A DNA stretch of 64,000 bases. It comes from Burkholderiales bacterium. GTDB taxonomy: Bacteria > Pseudomonadota > Gammaproteobacteria > Burkholderiales > Burkholderiaceae_C. The notes under the pieces are model-generated. The model was not told the DNA's origin. It searched no databases and saw only the letters and a list, made by a program, of their open reading frames with translations. A program made the position numbers and the translations under genes. Location: the NCBI GenBank assembly GCA_947451035.1, contig CANFXR010000001.1, forward strand, positions 46,123-110,122, given 5' to 3'. This document shows, piece after piece, positions 10,911 through 56,639 of the stretch; the stretch's first letter is position 1, and each line of letters opens with the position of its first letter.

Positions 10911-12142
10911 ACAGCGAACTGCCGACGGCGTTGGGTGCGGTCGCGAGCCTGCTGTTCGGTGTTCTGTGGGTTCCCGTGACCGTGTTTTCTTTACAAGTGT
11001 TCGCGGCGAGACCACATCAGTCCAACCAGGGCGGCCCAGCGGCAAATGGCGGGGGCCTTGATGACTCTGAATCCGAGCCGCGCCCACGGCTTGCCGTGTT
11101 AGTCCCTGCACACAACGAGGCGGTCGGTATCGCCGCGACCTTGATCGACGTGCTCTCGCAGCTGAACGCGGGCGACCGCTTGCTGGTGGTGGCAGATAAC
11201 TGCAGTGACGCGACGGCTGATGTCGCGCGGCACTGCGGCGCAGAGGTGATCGAGCGACAGCACGACACCTTGCGCGGAAAGGGCTACGCACTTGATTTCG
11301 GTTTGCAGCATCTGGCTACCGTGCCACCCGAGGTGCTGATCGTTGTTGATGCCGACTGCTCCTTGGACGCCTGCGCCTTGCAGCGCTTGGCGGTGGCGTG
11401 CGCCAGAACTCAGCGACCGGTTCAGGGCCTGTACCTGATGCACGCCCCCGTAAATGCCCCACTGGGCCGTCGCGTGGCCGCTTTCGCCTGGCGGGTCAAG
11501 AACTGGCTGCGCCCTTTAGGTGCATCCCGCTTGGGGATGCCGTGCCCGCTTATGGGGACCGGTATGGCCTTCCCGTGGATGTTGATCGGCGGCATGTCGC
11601 TGGCCACGGCGCATCTGGTGGAGGACATGAAGCTTGGCATCGAGTTGGCCCGTGCGGGATCTCCCCCACTGTTTGTTCCTGAAGCGAAGGTGAACAGCAT
11701 GTTTCCGCTGGCCCGCGAGGCCGTTCAGGCCCAACGAGCCCGTTGGGAACACGGGCACCTCTCGATGCTACTCACAGAAGGCCCAAGCCTCCTTGGCCGA
11801 GCGCTGGTGGCGTGGGATTTGCGCCTCGCGGCGATGGCGTTGGATCTGATGGTGCCGCCACTGACGCTGTTGCTGGGGTCGGTGCTGTTGGCCGTGGCCA
11901 CCGGTGTGGTGATGTTGTTGGTTGCTTCGGCCTTGCCGGCATGGGTCGCCTGTGGCTGCCTTACGTTGATGTTGGTTGCCATAGCCAGGGCTTGGTGGCT
12001 GGTTGGGCGTGACTTGTTGTCGTGGGGAGACCTACTTCGCGCACCTGCCCATGCCGTGCTGAAAATCCCGCTTTACTTGAAGTTCATCACCAACCGCCAA
12101 AAGGAGTGGGTGCGAACCGAACGACATGACGACAACTCCTGA
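10907..12142 (+). CDS. Membrane glycosyltransferase family 2 (cellulose-synthase-like)
   Basis: LAVLVPAHNEAVGIAAT, VDADCSLD, QRARWEHGH, C-terminal TM helices. Confidence 0.82.
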   Translation: MNSELPTALGAVASLLFGVLWVPVTVFSLQVFAARPHQSNQGGPAANGGGLDDSESEPRPRLAVLVPAHNEAVGIAATLIDVLSQLNAGDRLLVVADNCSDATADVARHCGAEVIERQHDTLRGKGYALDFGLQHLATVPPEVLIVVDADCSLDACALQRLAVACARTQRPVQGLYLMHAPVNAPLGRRVAAFAWRVKNWLRPLGASRLGMPCPLMGTGMAFPWMLIGGMSLATAHLVEDMKLGIELARAGSPPLFVPEAKVNSMFPLAREAVQAQRARWEHGHLSMLLTEGPSLLGRALVAWDLRLAAMALDLMVPPLTLLLGSVLLAVATGVVMLLVASALPAWVACGCLTLMLVAIARAWWLVGRDLLSWGDLLRAPAHAVLKIPLYLKFITNRQKEWVRTERHDDNS

Positions 12143-13256
12143 TCCCGATCCGGTTGCGTCCTTGCGGTCAACACACCAAGCCAGCGGACACACCGTCGAC
12201 TTCGGTCGCCACCTCTGTCTGGTGCTGGGACTGCCGTTTGACCTGATCGACCTAGATGCAGCCGTCGCTCGCATTCGTGCCGCCGTGGACTCGCGAACCC
12301 GGCTGTTCATCTCGACGCCGAACACCAACTTTGTTGTCGCCGCGATGCGTGACTCAGTGTTTCGGGACTCTGTTTTCCACAGCGACATGAGTCTCATGGA
12401 CGGAAAACCCTTGGTCTGGGCAGCCAGACTGATGGGCATTCCCGTACCGGAGCGTGTGAGCGGGGCCGACGTATTTGAAGCCTTGGGTCGACCAGGATCG
12501 GCCCCGATGTCGATCTATCTCTTCGGCGGACAACCAGGTATCTCTGCTAGGGCGGCGGCGAACATCAATGCCTCTCGGGGGCCCTTGAGTTGCGTCGGAT
12601 TCGATGAGGCTGGCTTTGGAAATATCGAAGACATGAGCGACGACGCGACCATTGATCGCATCAATGCCAGCGGAGCAGACTTTCTCGTGGTGTCACTGGG
12701 CGCAGCCAAGGGGCAAGCCTGGATCGAACATAACCTGGCGCGTTTGCAGGTTCCTGTCGTCAGCCACTTGGGCGCTGTCGTGGGTTTCGTTGCCGGTTCT
12801 GTGCGGCGCGCTCCACCATGGATGCGGTGGTCAGGGTTGGAGTGGCTGTGGCGGGTGAAGGAGGAACCGCAACTGTGGAGAAGATACGCCCGCGACGGTT
12901 TCGCCTTCCTTGGCCTGCTGGCGCTCCATGTGGTCCCGAATGCCCTGAGGCGACGCCCGCATGGGCGTACAAGCGAACCAGTTTCGCAGGCATGCCGGAT
13001 CAGCGAGTCAGCAACCAGCATGACGATTACTCTTGCGGGCACGCTAGGTGGCAGTGAACAGCAGGCACTCAAACAAATATGTCACGCCGGTGCCTGTGCA
13101 AGTCGCACGCTCACGATAGACCTGTCGGGCGTGATTGAAATAGACAACTCCTGTTTGGCCGCGCTGATGCTGCTTCAGGCACATCGCAGGCGCTGCGGGT
13201 TGAACGCAAAATTTCTTTACCCCACCTCCAGTCGCATACAGATCCCGAAAGACTAG
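12126..13256 (+). CDS. WecB/TagA/CpsF-family glycosyltransferase with C-terminal STAS-like domain
   Basis: TPNTNFVVAAMRD, SLMDGKPLVWAARLMG, ADFLVVSLGAAKGQAWIEHN, RAPPWMRWSGLEWLWRVKEEPQLWRRY; C-terminus TLTIDLSGVIEIDNSCLAALMLLQ resembles STAS core. Confidence 0.82.
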   Translation: MTTTPDPDPVASLRSTHQASGHTVDFGRHLCLVLGLPFDLIDLDAAVARIRAAVDSRTRLFISTPNTNFVVAAMRDSVFRDSVFHSDMSLMDGKPLVWAARLMGIPVPERVSGADVFEALGRPGSAPMSIYLFGGQPGISARAAANINASRGPLSCVGFDEAGFGNIEDMSDDATIDRINASGADFLVVSLGAAKGQAWIEHNLARLQVPVVSHLGAVVGFVAGSVRRAPPWMRWSGLEWLWRVKEEPQLWRRYARDGFAFLGLLALHVVPNALRRRPHGRTSEPVSQACRISESATSMTITLAGTLGGSEQQALKQICHAGACASRTLTIDLSGVIEIDNSCLAALMLLQAHRRRCGLNAKFLYPTSSRIQIPKD

Positions 13257-13257
13257 T

Positions 13258-14607
13258 TTGACCTCCGAATCTGTCGAGTTACCGAAAACCCTGCGTCAGC
13301 GAGTAATAAGTGCAGGCGGTTGGGCGCTCGGCGGATATGCCATTGGACAAGTTCTGCGCTTGGCAAGCAACTTGATACTTGCCCGACTTTTGTTCCCCGA
13401 AGCTTTCGGGATCATGGCGATCGCTGGTGCGATTTACGTCGGCGTCGTCATGCTGACCGATGTCGGAATAGGCCAGAGCATCATCGTCCACCAAGATGGG
13501 GGTGACGACCTGTTTCTTGATACTGCATGGGTATTGCAGATAATAAAGGGCACCCTCATTGCAGTGATTCTTGCGCTTGGATCAGGGTGGGCTGCCGATT
13601 TCTATGCGGACAAGCGACTTCATGAGATCGTTCTTATCATTGCTGCTACCGCACTGATTGGTGGATTTAATTCAACCAAACTGCAAACAGCCCATCGAAA
13701 CATGCAGGAACGGCAATTTTTCTTGGTTAATCTGGTGTCGCAGGCGGTCAGCATCGTAACGATGGTTGCCTTGGCATTTCTTAATAAAAGCCCTTCCAGC
13801 CTCGCATGGGGGGGCGTCGCAGGCGCTATTTTTACCTGCGCAACAAGTCACTTTTATTATCCTGGCCGCCTCAACCGACTTCGTCTTGACCGGAGTCATA
13901 CGCATCAAATCATGAGGTTCGGGGGAATAGTTCTTGTGAGTTCGACATTAACATTTGCTTGTGGAGAAGGAAGCAAGCTGTTGATGGGCTCCCTCATTGA
14001 CATGAAGACGATGGGGATTATAAGTATCGCGACCTCATTGAGTGGTCTTTGTGTTGGTATGGCAACGATGCTTTCTGGGAGAATACTATTTCCGGCGTAT
14101 GCCGAATTGCACAGGGAGGCGGCCTACTGCAAATTATATTCAGCGGTAAGTAAGGCGAGGGCCGTGCAAATAATATTTATGTGCGCTGTCTCAATAATTA
14201 TTATTTTTATTTCACGTCCGCTGATTGGGTTTTTTTACGACTCAAGATACTCGGAGGTTGCTGCGATTTTGGAAATAATGGCAATTGGCAACTTGGCGGT
14301 TGCATTGAATGTTTCATACGAATGTTTGGACATGGCAATTGGTCGCCCTGACCTCAAAATAAGGGTTGTGATCGTCATGGCTGCTAGTCTATGGGCGGCA
14401 GTTTTCATTGGGCATCACTACTGGGGAAGCATGGGTGTAATTTATGGGATCGCTGCATCGGGGTGGCTGAGTTATCCATTTATTTCTTATATATATTCAA
14501 GGGTTGGATTCTGGTATCCTAAAATTGACTTCCCTGTAATTGTTATGTCTATAGTAGCCGTAATTATTGCTGTGCGACTTGGGCATGGGCTGCCGGAATT
14601 TATCTGA
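13258..14607 (+). CDS. Oligosaccharide flippase (Wzx/PST family)
   Basis: GGWALGGYAIGQVLRLASNLILARLLFPEAFGIMAIA, polytopic; locus context. Confidence 0.82.
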   Translation: MTSESVELPKTLRQRVISAGGWALGGYAIGQVLRLASNLILARLLFPEAFGIMAIAGAIYVGVVMLTDVGIGQSIIVHQDGGDDLFLDTAWVLQIIKGTLIAVILALGSGWAADFYADKRLHEIVLIIAATALIGGFNSTKLQTAHRNMQERQFFLVNLVSQAVSIVTMVALAFLNKSPSSLAWGGVAGAIFTCATSHFYYPGRLNRLRLDRSHTHQIMRFGGIVLVSSTLTFACGEGSKLLMGSLIDMKTMGIISIATSLSGLCVGMATMLSGRILFPAYAELHREAAYCKLYSAVSKARAVQIIFMCAVSIIIIFISRPLIGFFYDSRYSEVAAILEIMAIGNLAVALNVSYECLDMAIGRPDLKIRVVIVMAASLWAAVFIGHHYWGSMGVIYGIAASGWLSYPFISYIYSRVGFWYPKIDFPVIVMSIVAVIIAVRLGHGLPEFI

Positions 14608-14889
14608 TCAAGTCCGAAGCAATTTTTCTTGTCGGGAGTCTGGGCGGTAGAGAGTCGTCTGGGGCATCGGGGCGCTTCTTCGCGCCTGCTGCAGACTGCG
14701 CTAGCAAAAAACGCTAGACCGACAAAGCCCCCGCACCCATTCGAGCCCATAGCGTCGGTTGGTCACCTTGTCGCCATGATCGGTCGCGATGCCGAAACGT
14801 CCTAGCTCGCGCAATCTGGATTTGCCAAGGCCGACACCCTAAACGCTACACAGGCCATTCGGAAAATTCGATATTACCCTTCACAGACT

Positions 14890-16263
14890 TCAAGCCAAGA
14901 ACCCCAAATTTGGTTTCGAAAATCTTCCAATGTTTGGCACGACGGTAGACAAGTCTGATGCTGGCACGCCAAACCAGGATGCGAGGGTGGCCGCATACTC
15001 ATCCACGGATGTGGTGGGGATCAATCGACCCTGCCCGGCGTCGTCCGGACTTCCCAGCGACACCGTCGGAAAGCGCCCGTAAATCCGATTGCCCAAGACC
15101 GCATCGCCCATGACGAAGTGGTGTCCGCCCCAACCGTGATCGGCACCTTGGCCGTTGCTTTGCAGGGCTCGGCCAAAATCGGAGGCCGTAAAGCTGGTCA
15201 CGTTGCCAGAAACGCCCATCGCAACCGTCGCCTGATAAAACGCGGTCATGGCGTCGGAAAGGTCTTTCAGTTTGGCCGCTTGGCCATTCACCAGATCTGC
15301 ATGGAAGTCGTAACCCCCCATCTGCACATAAAAAATCTGCCGCTTTTGTGCCAATCCACCTCGTGCTCCGATCAAACGGGCCACCATTTGCAGTTGTTTG
15401 CCGATGTCTGTGGTGGGGAAGGGCGTGCTCAGCGATACACCAGACAGAGCGGTGGTGACCAAAGACTCAGTTGCGATGGCACGGGATGAAACCTTGTTCA
15501 ACTCGCCTTCCATCAGTGTGCCGGTTCGTTGCTCCGTCATCAGTCTGCGTAACGCAGTGGCACCTGCGGCCGAGTAGTTGAACAGGCCACCCAATGCGTT
15601 CACCTTGACCGCACCATTGGTCGTGACTTGGTACTGGATCGTGTCGTTTCCAACCTGTGTGAGATTGTTGCCAGCCACTGACATCGCGATCGACACTCCA
15701 CTGCCGGTGTTGAATGCGCTGTTGGTTAGGTCGCCAATACGGCCCATCCAACCCGTGCTTGAGGCACGGTCTGGCAAGCCCGTTTGCCAGGCGCCCGCCT
15801 GGTCCGAGTGGGAGAACAGTTGGAAGGGCAAGGTGGCGCTGCCGTTCTTGTACTGCGCCTGGGTCGTAGGCGCACACAGAGTGCCCACATTAGCAAGCAC
15901 GGCGAGCTTCCCCTGATCAAAAACCGATTTCAAGCCACTCAGCGATCCGTGCATCGCCAAGGTGGGCCCGGTCCAACCCGTGGGACTGATCTGCTGGAGC
16001 GCAGAGATGGGCAAGGCGAGCGAACCTCTCCCTTTGGCGTAGAGGTCGTACTCCGCTGCGCTGATGGGAACGATCGTGTTTGACTGATCATTGCCCCCAC
16101 TGAGGTAGATGCAAACCAGAGCCTTGTAGTCGCTGGCTTGCTGTGCGCCGGCTGCCCCCATGGCGAGCAGGTTGGCTGCGAAGGGCGCCCCGGCCAAAGC
16201 CCCGAGCTTGGATGCCTGCCGAAGGAAGTTGCGGCGGCTTGATGAATCGTTGAGATTTTTCAT
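14890..16263 (-). CDS. DUF1501 domain-containing protein (Tat-exported)
   Basis: SSRRNFLRQASKLGALAGAPF Tat-like signal; LVCIYLSGGNDQSNTIVP; VQMGGYDFHADLVNGQAAKLKDLSDAMTAFY; paired with DUF1800 gene. Confidence 0.88.
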   Translation of the reverse strand: MKNLNDSSSRRNFLRQASKLGALAGAPFAANLLAMGAAGAQQASDYKALVCIYLSGGNDQSNTIVPISAAEYDLYAKGRGSLALPISALQQISPTGWTGPTLAMHGSLSGLKSVFDQGKLAVLANVGTLCAPTTQAQYKNGSATLPFQLFSHSDQAGAWQTGLPDRASSTGWMGRIGDLTNSAFNTGSGVSIAMSVAGNNLTQVGNDTIQYQVTTNGAVKVNALGGLFNYSAAGATALRRLMTEQRTGTLMEGELNKVSSRAIATESLVTTALSGVSLSTPFPTTDIGKQLQMVARLIGARGGLAQKRQIFYVQMGGYDFHADLVNGQAAKLKDLSDAMTAFYQATVAMGVSGNVTSFTASDFGRALQSNGQGADHGWGGHHFVMGDAVLGNRIYGRFPTVSLGSPDDAGQGRLIPTTSVDEYAATLASWFGVPASDLSTVVPNIGRFSKPNLGFLA

Positions 16264-16272
16264 GAATGCCCC

Positions 16273-18375
<2,103 letters not shown>

Positions 18376-46822: not shown

Positions 46823-48709
46823 GTTTCAATCCACGCGCGCCTCGTGAGAGGCGCGCGACCAGCGTCTCCGAGTGCCGCACCCCGTCCAGGGTGTTTCAAT
46901 CCACGCGCGCCTCGTGAGAGGCGCGCGACGATCGAGCGGCGGGATGCCGCGGAAATTACCGCTGTTTCAATCCACGCGCGCCTCGTGAGAGGCGCGCGAC
47001 CGTCTGTTCCGGTACGGTGGTAAGGGACACGGAGGTTTCAATCCACGCGCGCCTCGTGAGAGGCGCGCGACTCCCTGCGTTTACGCCACCCGCTCAGTTT
47101 GCGCTGTTTCAATCCACGCGCGCCTCGTGAGAGGCGCGCGACGGCTGAATGGGTCTACTCGCAACTGGTGCTTGACGTTTCAATCCACGCGCGCCTCGTG
47201 AGAGGCGCGCGACGCTGGTACTCCTCGAGGTTCCACCAGTGCCCGAAGTTTCAATCCACGCGCGCCTCGTGAGAGGCGCGCGACACGCACTGGGCCGATA
47301 TGCCGCAGGGGGCTCGATGTTTCAATCCACGCGCGCCTCGTGAGAGGCGCGCGACTTGGCACGGTCGTCGTAGTGACGATGCCCAACAGGTTTCAATCCA
47401 CGCGCGCCTCGTGAGAGGCGCGCGACGGGGTGAATCTGGTTCATGTTGAAAGCTCCAAGGGGTTTCAATCCACGCGCGCCTCGTGAGAGGCGCGCGACCT
47501 GCGGGCTACTGGCATCCTCGTCGCCGATGGTTTGTTTCAATCCACGCGCGCCTCGTGAGAGGCGCGCGACGGGTGATGGTCATGCCAAGTGCAATGTGAG
47601 TCACAGTTTCAATCCACGCGCGCCTCGTGAGAGGCGCGCGACCGCGCCGGCAGTGCTCGTGCCACGTTTCCGCATCGTTTCAATCCACGCGCGCCTCGTG
47701 AGAGGCGCGCGACGACCACCGACGCCGAACCCGGTGACCAACTGGTCGTTTCAATCCACGCGCGCCTCGTGAGAGGCGCGCGACGACGCGACGGGCGGCA
47801 CAGGCGCGCGCTGTCATAGTTTCAATCCACGCGCGCCTCGTGAGAGGCGCGCGACGCCAGCGTTTGGATCAGCTCAGCGTGGTGCTCGCAGTTTCAATCC
47901 ACGCGCGCCTCGTGAGAGGCGCGCGACTCGACGGCCTGGTGGCGGACGAATATGGCGACTGGTTTCAATCCACGCGCGCCTCGTGAGAGGCGCGCGACGG
48001 CTTATCAGTTGGCTATCGAGGCGGCGAAACATCGTTTCAATCCACGCGCGCCTCGTGAGAGGCGCGCGACCGCATTGGGCTGAGATCAAGGGGCCGCCAT
48101 GCACGTTTCAATCCACGCGCGCCTCGTGAGAGGCGCGCGACCGACGACGCGGAGCACGAAGAGCTTGCAGATCTGGTTTCAATCCACGCGCGCCTCGTGA
48201 GAGGCGCGCGACTCTCGCTCAGCATCGCGCTGATCGTTGGCAGCTTGTTTCAATCCACGCGCGCCTCGTGAGAGGCGCGCGACCCCCAGCGAGGGGCAAG
48301 CGGCTGAGATCAGCAGCCGTTTCAATCCACGCGCGCCTCGTGAGAGGCGCGCGACCTCCATCACTACGGGGAGATGGAAGACCATATGGTTTCAATCCAC
48401 GCGCGCCTCGTGAGAGGCGCGCGACGGCCGAATACAGCCCATGCGAGCCCGTCTGTTTTGTTTCAATCCACGCGCGCCTCGTGAGAGGCGCGCGACGCCC
48501 AGGTGTGAGCATTTGCCACATCTCCAAATCGTTTCAATCCACGCGCGCCTCGTGAGAGGCGCGCGACGCTCCATCACTCCGAGGGGACGGGAGACCATAT
48601 GGTTTCAATCCACGCGCGCCTCGTGAGAGGCGCGCGACACCCGTTGCAATCAGCACAGATTTCGTAATCGTAGTTTCAATCCACGCGCGCCTCGTGAGAG
48701 GCGCGCGAC
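46823..48709 (-). CRISPR. Type I-C CRISPR array: 27 repeats of 37 bp, 26 spacers of 33-35/36 bp
   Basis: Repeat GTTTCAATCCACGCGCGCCTCGTGAGAGGCGCGCGAC (+ strand), no variant seen; crRNA sense is the - strand (GTCGCGCGCCTCTCACGAGGCGCGCGTGGATTGAAAC). Confidence 0.99.
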
Positions 48710-48892
48710 TCCGCCCAAGTAACTTGTTGATTCCACATGTCGGCCTGCTCACGTTGCGCGAACCGGTTGCCCGGCTGCTTGCAGGGCGGTGACAGGTCGC
48801 ACAACACAACCCGGTTTATCAGTTGCATCAAGCACTTGGGTGGCGCGCGAACGTGAGGCAACTTTGCCGGTCACTCCAAGTTCGCGAAACGA
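48710..48892 (-). promoter_or_regulatory. CRISPR leader region between cas2 and the array
   Basis: Non-coding gap between cas2 stop and the cas-proximal repeat. Confidence 0.8.
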
Positions 48893-49199: not shown

Positions 49200-50228
49200 C
49201 TACTTGACGGCGAAAGGCAGATAGCCTGGTGCCTCGCCACGCACATGGCGGGCCAGCAATCGCGCTTGCACCAGCGGCACGACTCCGAGCGGCAGGCTTT
49301 CGGCCAGCAGCGGGTGGGTCAGCAGTTCCTGCTTGCGCTCCTGGTACGCCACCACCACGGCCTTACGTGCATCGGCCACCAGGTTCACCGCGCCCCCATC
49401 GCGCAGCTCAAAGTCGCCAGCGCGAAGCTGCCCGCGGTTGACCAGTGTCAGTGCCAGCCGGTCTGCGAGAGGGCGAAATTCTTCGATCAGGTCCAGCGCC
49501 AGCGCTGCTCGGCCAGGGCGTATGGCGTGCAGAAACCCCAGCTGCGGGTCGAGCCCCGCCGCTTCACAGGCCGATCGGCAATCGTTCATCCACATTGCAT
49601 AGAGAAACGACAGCAGCGCGTTCATGCGGTCACGCGGTGGGCGTCGGCTACGGCCGTCCATGCTGAAGTCGCCGCGCAGGTCGGGGCGCACGATCAGGTT
49701 GATGGCCGCAAAGTAGGTACGAGCCGCTTCACCTTCGACGCCGCGCAGCACGTCAAGCGCGGTGGCCTGTGGCAGGGCCCTGACGCTGGCCGCTAGGTCT
49801 TGCGCGGCGCGCGTGAGCAGTTCCTCTTCGTCAGCCGCCCTCGCTTCGCGTGCCCCGCGTAGCAGCACCTGTCGCTGGTTTTTCAGTTTGCCGGCAACCA
49901 CCGCGCGGGCTGCTTCCAGCGTGAAGCTGGCGTTATCGACCGCCCGGTGCTGGGCCTGCCGCAAAAGCACATTGCCCGACACTGCTCCTTCCAGTCGCGC
50001 CTTGAATCGGCCATTGGTGTCGAGCAGTACCAGCGCGATGGCATCCTCGGCCAGCCGGTGCATCAGCGGTGCGCTGAGGTTCACGTGGCCGAAGCACACC
50101 ACGGCTTGCAGGTGGTGCAGCGGCACGCGCAACTTGCTCTCGTCGCCAACCTGGATGCGCAAGGTGTCGTTGTCCAGCCGCAGGTAACTGTCGGGCAGCG
50201 TGACGTAAAGCGTGTTGAGCAGTTGCAT
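49200..50228 (-). CDS. cas1: CRISPR integrase Cas1 (type I-C)
   Basis: [77 protein letters not shown]. Confidence 0.97.
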
Positions 50229-50248
50229 GCATTGCACCCCTTGTTGTG

Positions 50249-50881
50249 TCAGGCATCCGGGTCGAACAAGGTCGAATATGCGCCGCGATCAAGTAGGCGG
50301 CCCATGGCCTCCGGCTGGCAGCGGTCGCGCAGTGAACAGCCCTTGCACCGCTGCGTGTCGGCGGTCGGCGGCGGTAGCACGCCACTGGTCAGCATGTCGC
50401 GCACAGCCGCGGCAATGGCCATGACCTGCCGCCGCAAGTGCTCGTCAATTTGCACAATCCGCCGGCGCTTCGAGCTCGCGTAATACAGCGCACCCTCGGC
50501 CACGGCATGCCCGGTCATCTGCTCGAGGCACATGGCCTGTGCTGCCAGCTGCACCTCGTCGCACGCGGCGATCGCCGCCGCCTTGTGGCGTGTGCCGTGC
50601 TTGTATTCCACGGGGTAGGCCGTGCCATCGGGCCCGAACTCCACGACGTCGGCCTTGCCGATCAGTCCGAGCCTGTCGTGCCAAAGCGGCAGCGCGCGTG
50701 CGACGCGCAGCCCCTTGCGCAACTCCATGCCCGGCTGGTCAACAATGGCATGGACGGCTTGGCCGCGCAACGTGTGCAAGTTGTCGTCGAAAGCCTGCTC
50801 GAGATGAATCAAGCCACACTGGCGTGGGCAATAAGCCCAGTGCTGCAGCGCGGACAGCGTCAGCGGGTCAAGGTCTTCCAT
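50249..50881 (-). CDS. cas4: CRISPR-associated exonuclease Cas4
   Basis: LSALQHWAYCPRQCGLIHLEQAF; VEYKHGTRHK; C-terminal RCKGCSLRDRCQP. Confidence 0.95.
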   Translation of the reverse strand: MEDLDPLTLSALQHWAYCPRQCGLIHLEQAFDDNLHTLRGQAVHAIVDQPGMELRKGLRVARALPLWHDRLGLIGKADVVEFGPDGTAYPVEYKHGTRHKAAAIAACDEVQLAAQAMCLEQMTGHAVAEGALYYASSKRRRIVQIDEHLRRQVMAIAAAVRDMLTSGVLPPPTADTQRCKGCSLRDRCQPEAMGRLLDRGAYSTLFDPDA

Positions 50882-50948: not shown

Positions 50949-51848
50949 TCAGCCCAACCGCCTGATCATGAGGATGTCCTCCGGTATCTCAGCCGCGTTG
51001 ATCGCCACGTCGTAGTCGGTAAAGTCGCGCGCCACCAGCACATCAGGCTTGCGTGTCACGCTCACGAGGTCGAACAGGTCATGGGCATGGGCGTTGCCGA
51101 GTGCTGTTTTGTGTTCGAAGACGTAGAGGCCGCGTGTCGCCATCTCGCCGCGCGCGGCAGATCGATCGTGCTCGAACATGTCTTCCAGCGCGCGGAAGAA
51201 CAACTCAAGGTCGGCTTGGCCGAAGCCGGTTTGCTTGGCCAGAAAAGCGGATACAAAGCCATGCGCCCGGTACAGGCCGTACGGCACGGTGTGCTTGCGT
51301 CCCATGGTGCGGTTGTCGCCATCCTGCTTTTCGGATTCAGCCTCTGTGGCCACGGCCATGCGGGTGATCGAGTGCTCGGTGGCCACGATGGGGTCTGCAG
51401 ATCGGCCGAAGGTCATCTGGACCGGCCCGCGCACCTGCCCGCAGTTCACGCCCGTGGACATGACTGCGCCAAATGTGCGGACATCGAAGAAGTTCTTGCA
51501 GATCCAGTCGCGCGCGGCCTTGACGCTGTCTTCGCTGCCCTTGCGCTTTTTCTTGCCGCCTTTGCCGTCGTCGGCCAGCTCATCGGTGGCGCCGATGGCG
51601 TCATAGGCGGCACGGTGTGTGCGCTCCAGCACGCCCTTTTCCTTGATGTAGATGTCGTGCGGCTTCGCGTAGTCGTTGACCATGCCCACGTAGTTGCGAA
51701 CCTTTCGCTTCAAGGCAACGTCGGTGACCAGCCCGTGGCCGGTCTCGGCATCGATGCGGGGCATGTTGCCCGCATCGGGGTCGCCGTTGGGGTTGCCGTC
51801 TTTCACGTCGAACAGCAGCACGAAGTCATAGCGGGTGGTGAGCGTCAT
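50949..51848 (-). CDS. cas7c: Type I-C Cas7 (Csd2)
   Basis: RYDFVLLFDVKDGNPNGDPDAGNMPRIDAETGHGLVTDVALKRKVRNYV. Confidence 0.96.
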   Translation of the reverse strand: MTLTTRYDFVLLFDVKDGNPNGDPDAGNMPRIDAETGHGLVTDVALKRKVRNYVGMVNDYAKPHDIYIKEKGVLERTHRAAYDAIGATDELADDGKGGKKKRKGSEDSVKAARDWICKNFFDVRTFGAVMSTGVNCGQVRGPVQMTFGRSADPIVATEHSITRMAVATEAESEKQDGDNRTMGRKHTVPYGLYRAHGFVSAFLAKQTGFGQADLELFFRALEDMFEHDRSAARGEMATRGLYVFEHKTALGNAHAHDLFDLVSVTRKPDVLVARDFTDYDVAINAAEIPEDILMIRRLG

Positions 51849-51850
51849 GG

Positions 51851-52222
51851 TCAGATCTCCTGGGTGGGTTCGTCGACGTGGCCTTCTTGCTTGCGCGCGT
51901 AGAAGGCTTGGCGTTGGTGGTAGTAGCCAAGCGCAAAGGTGGCTTGCTGGGGCAGCGTGAGCTGGCGCGGAAACTCGGTGATCGGCAGCATGATTTCGCC
52001 GATCAGCCGTTCGAAATAGGCGGTCTGCCCGTCGCTAAGTTTCTTTAGGTGCGCGTTCTTGAGCCGCAACAGCGTGGTGAACACCAGCACGGGCGTGGTC
52101 GATGCGCCGCCGTAGTACCGGTCGCGGATCGTGGCGTTGATCCCGGGCTGTGCCTGTTGCTGGATTCGCTCCAGCACGGCGAACAGCCTGCCCAGCAGAT
52201 AAGGCGCATCGGTTTGGAGCAT
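51851..52222 (-). CDS. cas11c: Putative internally initiated Cas11c small subunit (123 aa, C-terminal part of cas8c)
   Basis: In-frame ATG (MLQTDAPYLLGRLFAVLERI...) preceded by AAGGAGG 8 nt upstream inside cas8c. Confidence 0.75.
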   Translation of the reverse strand: MLQTDAPYLLGRLFAVLERIQQQAQPGINATIRDRYYGGASTTPVLVFTTLLRLKNAHLKKLSDGQTAYFERLIGEIMLPITEFPRQLTLPQQATFALGYYHQRQAFYARKQEGHVDEPTQEI

Positions 52223-53617
52223 GTCCAGTTCCTCCTTGAAGTGTTGATGAGATGGCGCGACAGCGCCGTGTCTGCGGCGGTGATCGCGGTTAAGCCAGGC
52301 CTTGAGCACAGCGGCCCGCAATGTGGTGACCTCCTGCTCGGCCTTGCAGCGCATGACCGCGGCGTTCAGCAGCGTTGCAGGGTAGGGCTGGCCCTCAAGA
52401 ATGGCCCGCATCCATTCGCCTGCCAGCCGTGGTGGCATGTTGTCGAGCTTGCCCAGCAAGGCCACGCTCGCGAGCAGCCGAAACAGCGAGGGCGTGACGG
52501 GGTCGTTGTCGTACCGGCGTATCACCGCCAGGTCAGCAAAGTGCTGAAGGATGCGCGGCGCGAGTTCGGCCAGTGGCGCGCGCAGCCAGAAGCGCACGCT
52601 GATGCGTGCCGCGTTCGGGGCCAACCCGAGGACGAAGAACTGGGTGTCTTCTTCGCCTGCGGGCAACCGGCCGCTGACCACCGCCTCGTGCAGCGCCAGT
52701 ACCGCACGCACGCCACGATCCGGGTCGTCCTTGTTTTCACCAAAAAAATCGGCGAGAGTGAATTCGCCGTCGAACTGCGTTGCCCTGTCTGCCCAGAACA
52801 CGGTGGAGGCATCGCCGACCTGCACGCGGTTTCGCGAGCCTTGTGACAGAAGGTGGTTGAGTGCTGTGGTGTAGGCAAAGGCACCGCGCTCTCCCACAGG
52901 CGCGTTCTCACCCTGCCGCTCTGTCTTGCCGTAAGACTCGAACGCACGCGCATTGAACGACACGATGTTGGCGCCTGATGATTGCGCGCCCCACACGCCC
53001 TTGATCGATGAATGCAGCCGCTGAATCGGTGCCTGCACACCTTCAATGAGGCACAGGCCCACCGCCGCATCCTCGGCTGCCGCTGGGCGGCTTGCTGCCA
53101 CCACAGCCGGGCGCTGGCACACCAGATCCACATCCCCGCTCAGCTGGAAGGTCATGACCGGGTTGGTCTCGCAGATCTCGCCCCACGCCGCGTGGGCCTG
53201 GAGCGCGCTCCAGTCGGCGCGGTCGATCGCTGCCAGCACGGCCTGTACGCCGGCATCCGCCTGGGCTGTGTCGGGCAGGGCCGCGATGCGTGCGCGAAAC
53301 GCCGCATGCGGGGTGATCTCGGAATGCCCCTTGCGCGCCCTGTCAGTGCCGATGGCGTAAGCCGCGCTGTCCCACAGCAGATTGGCTGCTACGCCCGAAG
53401 TCTTCTTGACACCTTGGGGAACAAGGAAAGACTGGGCACGCAGTTTCTTGCCGTCGAGGCTGCGGGTGTCGCGCAGTTGCACCACCCGGCCTTCGGACGT
53501 GAGTTCGATGACGAAGGGGATGTCCTTGTCCTCAAAACCGAGGCTGGGCAGCCGCTTTGCAGGATTCGGGTCGCACGCCTTGCGGTCGTAGTACCGCACC
53601 AGCTCTTGCAGGATCAT
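51851..53617 (-). CDS. cas8c: Type I-C Cas8c (Csd1)
   Basis: MILQELVRYYDRKACDPNPAKRLPSLGFEDKDIPFVIELTSEGRVVQLRDTR. Confidence 0.96.
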   Translation of the reverse strand: MILQELVRYYDRKACDPNPAKRLPSLGFEDKDIPFVIELTSEGRVVQLRDTRSLDGKKLRAQSFLVPQGVKKTSGVAANLLWDSAAYAIGTDRARKGHSEITPHAAFRARIAALPDTAQADAGVQAVLAAIDRADWSALQAHAAWGEICETNPVMTFQLSGDVDLVCQRPAVVAASRPAAAEDAAVGLCLIEGVQAPIQRLHSSIKGVWGAQSSGANIVSFNARAFESYGKTERQGENAPVGERGAFAYTTALNHLLSQGSRNRVQVGDASTVFWADRATQFDGEFTLADFFGENKDDPDRGVRAVLALHEAVVSGRLPAGEEDTQFFVLGLAPNAARISVRFWLRAPLAELAPRILQHFADLAVIRRYDNDPVTPSLFRLLASVALLGKLDNMPPRLAGEWMRAILEGQPYPATLLNAAVMRCKAEQEVTTLRAAVLKAWLNRDHRRRHGAVAPSHQHFKEELDMLQTDAPYLLGRLFAVLERIQQQAQPGINATIRDRYYGGASTTPVLVFTTLLRLKNAHLKKLSDGQTAYFERLIGEIMLPITEFPRQLTLPQQATFALGYYHQRQAFYARKQEGHVDEPTQEI

Positions 53618-54276
53618 CGCGCGGCCCCCTGTGTGCCGACCGCGATGACACCTGCGTTCATCTGCGCCCGGAAAAACACAGGCTGTGGGTCCTGGGGGTC
53701 AGTGAAATCCAGGTCGTGCAGCATCCATCCGAGGTCACGCGTGTCCGGGATAGGCGCGGGCTCGCTGTCCGCGCTGGTCACCAACCGCACGCGCGCAGCA
53801 AACTCCCTGCAGCCCAGATAGGGCTGGTTGACGCATTGGCCGTTCGTGGCACGGCGCTCGAACATGGCGTGGTACTTCTGCGGCGGCTCTGGATCTTGGC
53901 GATCGGTACGCACTTCCAGTTCGGCGTGCACGCGATAGGCCACATCGCGCAGCAACAAACTGGCACGCTGGGCGCGCTCACTTGGGTCGTCGGCGTAGAT
54001 CGACAGGTCGACGTCGGCGCCGTTCATGACTCTGGCGACATTGCTGAGCGATACCTTGCTTCCTACCTCATTGCGCCGCAGGTTGACGAAGCGAACAGGG
54101 CGCAAAACCTCGATGCGCCGCACGTGCCAGCGGATGGCTGGCTTCCACAGAATCGACTCAAACACCGCCCGCGCAGCCGACGGGGTGATCACGTCGTAGG
54201 ACACGCGCTCGACCTTCATTTCGGGGCGGGTGAAACAGGCCAACTCACCTGAGATCTCTAGGCAGTAACTTTTCAT
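53614..54276 (-). CDS. cas5c: Type I-C Cas5 (Cas5c/Cas5d) pre-crRNA processing subunit
   Basis: YCLEISGELACFTRPEMKVERVSYDVITPSAARAVFESILWKPAIRW. Confidence 0.96.
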   Translation of the reverse strand: MKSYCLEISGELACFTRPEMKVERVSYDVITPSAARAVFESILWKPAIRWHVRRIEVLRPVRFVNLRRNEVGSKVSLSNVARVMNGADVDLSIYADDPSERAQRASLLLRDVAYRVHAELEVRTDRQDPEPPQKYHAMFERRATNGQCVNQPYLGCREFAARVRLVTSADSEPAPIPDTRDLGWMLHDLDFTDPQDPQPVFFRAQMNAGVIAVGTQGAAR

Positions 54277-54302: not shown

Positions 54303-56639
54303 TCATTGAACAAGGCTGGCCACGTCCAGCGCCTGTCCCTCGGGCAGCAGTCCGAGCCGCGGGTCATAGCGCAGTTGATCGACCAGTAAAAACATGCCGG
54401 GTACGAGTTCCTGGACGTCTCCGCGAGCCTGCCATGCGGTGACCTGCTTGCGCCGCACTGTGACCGTGTAGCGCTGCAACTTGCGCAGCAGCCAGCGGTC
54501 TGTGGCGCCGCTGCGCAACTGCGATATGAGCGGTTGGATTGAAGGCTTCCCGACGCTCTGGTAATCGACGATGACGGTGGCCTGGTCCTCATCGTCGATG
54601 AGCCGAAACCGCTCGGCAGCGGTCTTGAAATTGAATTCGAAGCGGGAGTTCTTGGCCAGCTCATCGCAGATCTGGTGTTTGTCGCGGCTCGCAAAGCCCG
54701 CGTAGTACAGCGGGAAGTAGCGCTCAAAGGCAGCGGGCGACAGGGCGTTGCCGCCGGCCTGCAATACCGTGCGAGTGGCTTGTGCGGCAACGCGAATCTG
54801 ATGCAAGGGCTTGGGGACGTCCCGCACGAAGACCACGACCAGGCCTTTCCCGCCGTCAGGCAATCGCCCCTCACGGTTGCACCTGCCTGCCGCTTGGGCC
54901 ACCGAATCCAGCCCCGCGAGTGCACGAAATACAACTGGGAAGTCGATGTCCACACCGGCTTCCACCAGTTGTGTGCTGACCACCCGCAATGGGCGCGCAT
55001 CGCGGCCTTCACGACGGGCCTGCAGGCGCTCGCGGATCTCGGAGATGACGTCAGCACGGTGTTGTCCGCACAACGAGGCCGACAGGTGCAGCGTGACGTC
55101 GCCAGTGATCTGGTCCAGTGCGCTCGTGATTTCGGCGGCATCGCGGCGTGTGTTGACGATGGTCAACACACAGTCAAAGGTCGCCAACCGGTCCACCAGT
55201 TCGGCCGTGCCCATTGATGTGTGCAGGTCAGTCGGCCATTCGATATCGACGCGTTCAAGCGCCGCAAAAAGTTCAACTTCATCGTCAATGACGGGGGTGG
55301 CGGTGGGCAGACCGCGTATGCTTTTCCGCGGATCGAAGCGCTGGCTGTCGCCGAGCGTTGGCTGTGTGGCGGTGCACAGCAGCAGCGTGACGCCGAAATG
55401 TGTAACCAGCACGTTCAACGCATCGAGGATCGGCTGAAGGAATTCAGGCGGCAGCAACTGGGCTTCGTCAAGCACGATCACGCTGCCGGCGATGTTGTGC
55501 AACTTTCGACAACGCGATGTGCGCGCGGCGAACAGCGACTCGAACAGTTGAACGTTGGTGGTCACGACCAGTGGCGCGTCCCAGTTTTCGCACGAAAGGC
55601 GGCTTCGAAGGCTTTCTTGCCGGTCGTCCGTGTCGGCCTGGCTGTGGTGTTCCATGACTTGGTTCACACCAAAGATATGGCTGAATACATCGGCCGTCTG
55701 CTCGATGATGCTGGTGTAGGGGATGGCATAGATGACGCGTCGTTTGCCGTGGGTCTCGGCGTGCTGCAGGGCGAAGGCGAGGGATGACAGAGTCTTGCCG
55801 CCACCGGTTGGCACCGTCAGCGTGAATACCCCCGGTGGAAGTTTGGCCTTGGCTCGGCACTGCGCGAGCACGCTGGCACGGGCGCGCATGACTTTGTCGG
55901 CCGCCAGTCCTGCCCGGTCAGTTTGTTCGGCGATGGTTGCAAGATGCCCAGCGAGTTGCGTTGCATACGCCGCCAACGGCTGGTATCCCGACCGCGCGCG
56001 CCCATGCTTCGCGTTGAGAAAGTTTTCGGTGTCCAGGAAGTCAGCGTCAACCAATGCCGAAAACAACATGCGAATCCAGCAAGACACGGTCAATGGTTGA
56101 CCCCCGGCGGGGTCAGGAATGGCCGCCAGCGCCGCTTTGAATGTGAAGGCGCCGGGCAGGGCCAGCAGATCGCCGTCGAGCGGTGCGCAAGTGGACACCG
56201 CCTCCGCGAACTCACGCTCACTGTCCGAAGCGCCTGTCCCAGAGAGCCGACGATCGAGCCCCGCCACCCAGTCGCCAAGCCCGGCGTGGTGGCCTGCGAT
56301 CACATAGCTCAGCACTCTGGACAGAACCGCACCGTTTGGGCCGAATTGCGCTGCGAAGGTTTGCCGCGCATGCAGCGCTCCAGCGGCTGAGTGCGTTTTG
56401 TCACTGTTGCTTGGCAGCTTGCCCTCAATATGGGCCTCGTGGCCGTTTACCTGACGGATGTAGCGCTGAAACCCCGGCCGGTACTTGCCCAGGTCGTGCC
56501 AGAGACCTGCAAGGTGGGCCCATGTCTCGGAGCCGAATGGCTCTGCAAAGCAATGCGCTGCCGCCGCGACGGCCAACAAGTGCTCTCGCAGCAGATGCGG
56601 CGTGCCGTCTGTGCTGACGTGGGCGAGTTTGGTGTCCAT
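54303..56639 (-). CDS. cas3: CRISPR-associated HD nuclease-helicase Cas3
   Basis: LWHDLGKYRPGFQ HD motif; TVPTGGGKTLSSLAFALQHA; IVLDEAQLLPPEF; STQLVEAGVDIDFPVVFR. Confidence 0.97.
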   Translation of the reverse strand: MDTKLAHVSTDGTPHLLREHLLAVAAAAHCFAEPFGSETWAHLAGLWHDLGKYRPGFQRYIRQVNGHEAHIEGKLPSNSDKTHSAAGALHARQTFAAQFGPNGAVLSRVLSYVIAGHHAGLGDWVAGLDRRLSGTGASDSEREFAEAVSTCAPLDGDLLALPGAFTFKAALAAIPDPAGGQPLTVSCWIRMLFSALVDADFLDTENFLNAKHGRARSGYQPLAAYATQLAGHLATIAEQTDRAGLAADKVMRARASVLAQCRAKAKLPPGVFTLTVPTGGGKTLSSLAFALQHAETHGKRRVIYAIPYTSIIEQTADVFSHIFGVNQVMEHHSQADTDDRQESLRSRLSCENWDAPLVVTTNVQLFESLFAARTSRCRKLHNIAGSVIVLDEAQLLPPEFLQPILDALNVLVTHFGVTLLLCTATQPTLGDSQRFDPRKSIRGLPTATPVIDDEVELFAALERVDIEWPTDLHTSMGTAELVDRLATFDCVLTIVNTRRDAAEITSALDQITGDVTLHLSASLCGQHRADVISEIRERLQARREGRDARPLRVVSTQLVEAGVDIDFPVVFRALAGLDSVAQAAGRCNREGRLPDGGKGLVVVFVRDVPKPLHQIRVAAQATRTVLQAGGNALSPAAFERYFPLYYAGFASRDKHQICDELAKNSRFEFNFKTAAERFRLIDDEDQATVIVDYQSVGKPSIQPLISQLRSGATDRWLLRKLQRYTVTVRRKQVTAWQARGDVQELVPGMFLLVDQLRYDPRLGLLPEGQALDVASLVQ

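What the first reader, a model, noticed from the sequence alone, without database searches (positions are those of the whole stretch)
48356..48601. Two CRISPR spacers are homologous and differ only at every third base, all synonymous
Spacer 48356-48388 (ctccatcactacggggagatggaagaccatatg) and spacer 48568-48601 (gctccatcactccgaggggacgggagaccatatg) align end to end apart from one extra g. Differences fall at positions 11, 14, 17, 20 and 23, an exact 3-bp period. Both encode YGLPSPRSDG on one strand and PSLRGDGRPY on the other, in a frame where every change is synonymous. This implies two acquisitions, from the same PAM-defined site, of a conserved gene in two diverged invaders. The leader-proximal copy (48568) is the later one if integration is at the leader end.
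Basis: seen in the sequence. Interest (0 to 1): 0.75.

Follow-up and report, generated by a model that had tools for sequence, protein, structure and literature searches.

The report
Twice-sampled viral site in CRISPR array
A bacterium's CRISPR immune memory holds two versions of the same short stretch of what is almost certainly a virus gene, differing only at silent codon positions, which means it captured the same spot from two related but diverged invaders; related bacteria show the same pattern, so it is real and recurrent rather than a new mechanism.

Summary
Spacers 2 and 5 of a 26-spacer type I-C array (27 identical repeats, 46823-48709; complete cas3-cas5c-cas8c-cas7-cas4-cas1-cas2 operon) share 28/33 positions, start at the same base on the PAM side, and differ only at positions 11, 14, 17, 20 and 23. 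All five differences are synonymous in one frame on each strand. Random 5-substitution variants are all-synonymous in some frame 0.14% of the time. Chance similarity and duplication-plus-drift are both disfavoured. The best reading is two independent acquisitions of one PAM-anchored site in a conserved coding sequence of two diverged invaders, spacer 2 being the later. The source gene was not found: neither peptide occurs in IMG/VR, and INPHARED phages, PLSDB plasmids and GTDB genomes also gave nothing. The PAM is therefore inferred only. New here: among 1645 spacers from 55 Burkholderiales I-C loci I found about a dozen further same-edge homologous pairs. Their differences are codon-phased (32 of 42 in the dominant phase, 23.6 expected, p about 5e-5 without the window pair). 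One sister pair maps to the conserved EISFVPVPAD motif of a phage prohead-protease/capsid protein. This is ordinary CRISPR biology, well documented by sequence.

The parts
48568..48601 (-). Spacer 2 (newer of the pair), CATATGGTCTCCCGTCCCCTCGGAGTGATGGAGC
48356..48388 (-). Spacer 5 (older of the pair), CATATGGTCTTCCATCTCCCCGTAGTGATGGAG
46823..48709 (-). CRISPR array: 27 identical 37-nt repeats (GTCGCGCGCCTCTCACGAGGCGCGCGTGGATTGAAAC on the crRNA strand), 26 spacers of 33-35 nt
48710..48892 (-). Leader between cas2 and the array, with two GTTCGCG boxes conserved in relatives L036, L038, L043, L078
48893..49246 (-). cas2 (TIGR01573)
49200..50237 (-). cas1, type I-C (TIGR03640, above cut-off)
50249..50881 (-). 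cas4 (TIGR00372)
50949..51848 (-). cas7/csd2 (TIGR02589)
51851..53617 (-). cas8c/csd1 (TIGR01863), the type I-C signature
53614..54276 (-). cas5c/cas5d (TIGR01876)
54303..56639 (-). cas3 helicase plus HD nuclease (TIGR01587, TIGR01596)
47214..47247 (-). Spacer 21: 31/34 match to the SNF2/DEAD helicase gene of Burkholderia phage BcepC6B (FGHWWNLEEYQ versus FGHWWNLEEYL); upstream triplet there is GTC

Best explanation
The array is an apparently intact type I-C CRISPR-Cas memory in a Burkholderiales bacterium. Its Cas4-Cas1-Cas2 machinery took up the same PAM-anchored protospacer on two occasions. First came S5; later, after at least S4 and S3 (the surviving spacers between them), came S2. The two donors were related mobile elements (most likely tailed phages) carrying a gene whose amino-acid sequence at this spot is conserved but whose silent positions have diverged. 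Shown: the sequence relation, codon-phased differences, shared PAM-side edge, different lengths, leader orientation, and recurrence in relatives. Inferred: the donor is a phage gene, the PAM is TTC, and the older S5 guide would pair poorly with the newer donor (five mismatches outside the seed), which would make the second uptake useful.
For: Only codon-third positions differ and all changes are silent. The PAM-side edge is identical while the distal end differs by one base (33 versus 34 nt), as expected of separate integrations measured from one PAM. All 27 repeats are identical, so there is no sign of 15% drift in the locus. In 55 I-C loci (1645 spacers) other same-edge homologous pairs occur with the same codon phasing: L061 12/32 (0,3,6), L061 40/46 (0,15,18,21,27), L048 2/42 (24,27,30), L061 1/31 (5 of 6 in phase), L070 9/11 (4 of 5). 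Pooled without the window: 32 of 42 differences in the dominant phase, 23.6 expected, p about 5e-5. Sister pair L061 40/46 encodes FVPVPADPGAG and matches Synechococcus phage MinM1 30/35 in a Peptidase_S78 plus capsid protein (EISFVPVPADAGAG). For that pair a TTC PAM plus the first spacer base (C or A) spells TCC/TCA = Ser, the residue found there in MinM1. Spacer 21 of this array resembles a phage helicase gene. Precedent: in type I-C Legionella two independently acquired spacers hit the same protospacer (PMC5071653).
Against: No protospacer was found for S2 or S5 in any collection searched, nor either peptide in any coding form in IMG/VR, so the coding origin rests on the substitution pattern alone. 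The MinM1 match is weak on its own (E 0.5; the triplet upstream there is CAG). The I-C PAM was not verified for this host.
Confidence: 0.87

Rival explanations
1. Duplication within the array followed by mutation of one copy.
For: Duplication-plus-drift does occur in this family: the L083 array holds runs of near-identical adjacent spacers, and L051 holds a repeated block of spacers.
Against: Those copies are mostly adjacent or in block order, of equal length, and differ at positions without codon phase (5, 7, 16, 27). S2 and S5 are not adjacent, differ in length, and differ only at codon-third positions, while 27 repeats have not changed at all.
Confidence: 0.03
2. One invader carrying two diverged copies (paralogs) of the gene, or one mixed population of a single virus species, sampled twice.
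For: The spacers alone cannot tell two invaders from two copies in one; only two spacers separate them in the array.
Against: About half of the synonymous sites in the stretch differ, so the copies diverged well beyond strain-level noise; no evidence for a duplicated gene was found.
Confidence: 0.07
3. Assembly chimera: the two spacers come from arrays of different strains joined in this metagenome assembly.
For: The genome looks metagenome-assembled (164 contigs, 87.85% complete), and identical repeats invite misjoining.
Against: A misjoin can put two real spacers side by side but cannot create silent differences; the two acquisitions would still be real, only in different cells.
Confidence: 0.02
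4. Chance similarity of unrelated spacers.
For: None beyond the missing protospacer.
Against: No comparably similar pair arose in 80,000 random between-locus comparisons.
Confidence: 0.001

Closest known systems
Redundant spacers in type I-C experiments (Legionella pneumophila Toronto-2005, PMC5071653)
   Same: Two independently acquired I-C spacers target the same protospacer.
   Different: There it was one plasmid with identical sequence; here two diverged versions, with silent changes only.
Spacer and protospacer divergence under phage coevolution (e.g. Sulfolobus islandicus SIRVs, PMC6452263)
   Same: Older spacers mismatch current virus versions; the host needs updated ones.
   Different: There mismatches crowd the seed; here the first ten bases from the PAM side are identical in both spacers and all changes lie at positions 11-23.
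Similar spacers of uncertain origin discussed for CRISPRStudio (PMC6267562)
   Same: That paper raises exactly the question of diverged spacers versus independent acquisitions and calls the likelihood of the latter unknown.
   Different: Here codon phasing and edge/length differences give a sequence-only way to tell the two apart.

Membership tests
Type I-C CRISPR-Cas | cas8c (csd1), cas5c, cas7 (csd2) effector genes with cas3 | tested here: met
   NCBIfam models TIGR01863, TIGR01876, TIGR02589, TIGR01587 and TIGR01596 above cut-off
Type I-C CRISPR-Cas | cas4-cas1-cas2 adaptation module with I-C-type Cas1 | tested here: met
   TIGR00372, TIGR03640 and TIGR01573 above cut-off
Type I-C CRISPR-Cas | I-C repeat ending ATTGAAAC with a G+C-rich stem, spacers of about 33-36 nt, leader next to cas2 | tested here: met
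Type I-C CRISPR-Cas | 5'-TTC PAM | tested here: inconclusive
   No exact protospacer found. Spacer 21's diverged match has GTC; MinM1 has CAG for the sister pair. TTC is the literature value (PMC7913775); TTN is reported for Acidovorax I-C (PMC8482600)
Independent acquisitions from one protospacer site in diverged donors | Same PAM-side edge, independent length | tested here: met
   Offset 0; 33 versus 34 nt
Independent acquisitions from one protospacer site in diverged donors | Differences follow the codon pattern of a conserved protein | tested here: met
   5 of 5 in one phase, all synonymous; pooled test in relatives
Independent acquisitions from one protospacer site in diverged donors | Each spacer matches its own donor element exactly | tested here: inconclusive
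   No donor in any collection searched

The most novel reading that the evidence does not exclude
Re-sampling of the same site is not random but favoured: an outdated, partly matching spacer steers the adaptation machinery back to the very site it matches, so the array updates an obsolete memory. In the related arrays, non-identical homologous pairs share the same edge (within 1 nt) in 18 cases and are staggered or on the opposite strand in only 3. My rough expectation for PAM-limited random sampling is 0.4 to 1 staggered pair per same-site pair before allowing for poorer detection of short overlaps, so the excess is suggestive only.
Probability: 0.08. Interest if true: 0.7.

Novelty: new member of a known kind. 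Interest (0 to 1): 0.36.

Why it matters
It offers a sequence-only signature (same PAM-side edge, codon-phased silent differences, unequal length) that separates genuine repeated encounters with related viruses from spacer duplication, without needing the virus genome. Applied to 55 loci it already shows that repeated capture of one site from diverged invaders is recurrent in Burkholderiales type I-C arrays. It also recovers conserved peptide motifs of unknown viruses from the host's memory.

Tried and rejected
Protospacer search: fully degenerate peptide patterns in both coding directions in IMG/VR (0 hits) and a third-position-degenerate pattern in GTDB genomes (0). Half patterns gave L003-L006. 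They lack the rest of the peptide and fit the few chance hits expected. L003 encodes RGDGRPY in a SNF2-like helicase but diverges on both sides, so I treat it as chance. A pattern with up to 3 mismatches in about 500 genomes of the order, family and genus found only the array itself, as did peptide searches in 300 family genomes apart from weak matches; the 1218-aa G197 frame with ALPSPRSDGA looks like chance. Padded peptides against Pfam, PHROGs, INPHARED tblastn and the PDB gave nothing useful. blastn of all spacers against phages, plasmids and family genomes gave only S21 versus BcepC6B as a convincing match. A DLPYG DNA-methyltransferase motif for the minus-strand peptide is a thought from memory, not tested.

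Full report
Observation. The window holds a complete type I-C CRISPR-Cas locus on the minus strand: cas3, cas5c, cas8c, cas7, cas4, cas1, cas2, followed by an array of 27 identical 37-nt repeats and 26 spacers at 46823-48709. Counting from the cas2 side, the two spacers of the finding are S2 (48568-48601, 34 nt) and S5 (48356-48388, 33 nt). On the crRNA strand they start with the same ten bases (CATATGGTCT), end with the same ten (AGTGATGGAG), and differ at 11, 14, 17, 20 and 23 only, with one extra base at the far end of S2. Both encode YGLPSPRSDG on the minus strand and PSLRGDGRPY on the plus strand, and every change is silent in both readings.

Chance. Five differences in an exact period-3 run have probability 8.8e-5 among all placements; being in one codon phase, 0.6%. 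Of random 5-substitution variants of S5, 0.14% are all-synonymous in some frame and 0.004% in two frames. These tests were chosen after seeing the pattern, so the independent test below matters more.

Context. The leader lies between cas2 and the array (48710-48892). In an alignment with four relatives, two GTTCGCG boxes and the leader-repeat junction are conserved, so new spacers are expected to enter at the high-coordinate end and S2 is the newer. The closest genomes carrying the locus are metagenome-assembled genomes of Burkholderiales; three of the 14 genus mates have the system. The relatives' arrays share no spacer with the window.

Independent test in relatives. From 80 Cas1 relatives I extracted arrays at 54 loci plus the window: 1645 spacers and 44,173 within-locus pairs. 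Among pairs that are homologous but not identical, nearly all start at the same PAM-side base. Most of those with three or more differences show the same codon phasing: L061 12/32 (0,3,6), L048 2/42 (24,27,30), L061 40/46 (0,15,18,21,27 and the last base), L061 1/31 (five of six), L070 9/11 (four of five), L061 13/19 (three of four). Leaving the window pair out, 32 of 42 differences fall in the dominant phase where 23.6 are expected, p about 5e-5. Many pairs also differ in length. In contrast, apparent duplications in the same set (L083 runs, L051 block) are mostly adjacent or in block order, of equal length, and differ without codon phase. The window pair therefore belongs to the first class.

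A sister case with a gene. L061 spacers 40 and 46 both encode FVPVPADPGAG. Spacer 40 matches Synechococcus phage MinM1 at 30 of 35 positions (E 0.5 by itself), inside a protein with Peptidase_S78 (prohead protease) and Phage_capsid_4 domains, in the motif EISFVPVPADAGAG. The weak nucleotide score is offset by the frame: the codon phase of the two spacers predicts this frame, and a TTC PAM plus the first spacer base (C or A) would encode Ser (TCC/TCA), the residue present in MinM1 (AGC there). Here the pattern most likely does come from a conserved phage gene.

Targets of this array. Spacer 21 matches Burkholderia phage BcepC6B at 31/34 in a SNF2/DEAD helicase gene; two of its three differences are silent. 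So at least one spacer points to a tailed phage. For S2 and S5 no target was found: no DNA or peptide match in IMG/VR, INPHARED phages, PLSDB plasmids, GTDB genome contigs, E. coli genomes or several hundred relatives. The public record holds neither exact peptide as far as these searches reach, so the gene and the PAM remain unknown.

Mechanism. Best reading: two separate uptakes of one PAM-anchored site from two diverged relatives of one invader lineage. The older guide (S5) has its seed intact against the newer donor but five mismatches at 11-23. From general knowledge of type I systems this would weaken interference and might favour priming; not tested here. The same-edge excess over staggered overlaps (18 versus 3) is roughly what PAM-limited sampling gives once short overlaps are under-detected (my estimate), so no steering mechanism is claimed.

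Verdict. Real, correctly read, and shown here to be recurrent; the central claim about a particular gene and PAM is unproven. Ordinary adaptive immunity with an unusually clean signature. The literature search found precedent for two I-C spacers on one protospacer (PMC5071653) and a statement that the likelihood of independent similar acquisitions is unknown (PMC6267562), but no paper using codon phase within an array; that search was small.

Noticed in passing
L083 (Tepidicella baoligensis), array from 11614: Runs of identical and near-identical spacers (4-8, 12-19) that seem to be serial duplications with stepwise substitutions; differences are not codon-phased. A natural contrast to independent acquisition.
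   Followed up: partly
L051, array spacers 10-17 and 18-25: A block of eight spacers is duplicated in tandem in this Comamonadaceae MAG array.
   Followed up: no
L061 (Comamonas sp. MAG), array 11599-18110: Four separate clusters of same-site homologous spacers in one 91-spacer array (12/32, 13/19/43, 1/31, 40/46), the richest case seen.
   Followed up: partly
window 47214-47247: Spacer 21 matches the SNF2 helicase gene of Burkholderia phage BcepC6B 31/34 (FGHWWNLEEY).
   Followed up: yes
window 48710-48892 and relatives: The leader carries two copies of a GTTCGCG box about 90 bp apart, conserved in relatives with cas1 identity down to about 75%; possibly an adaptation signal.
   Followed up: partly
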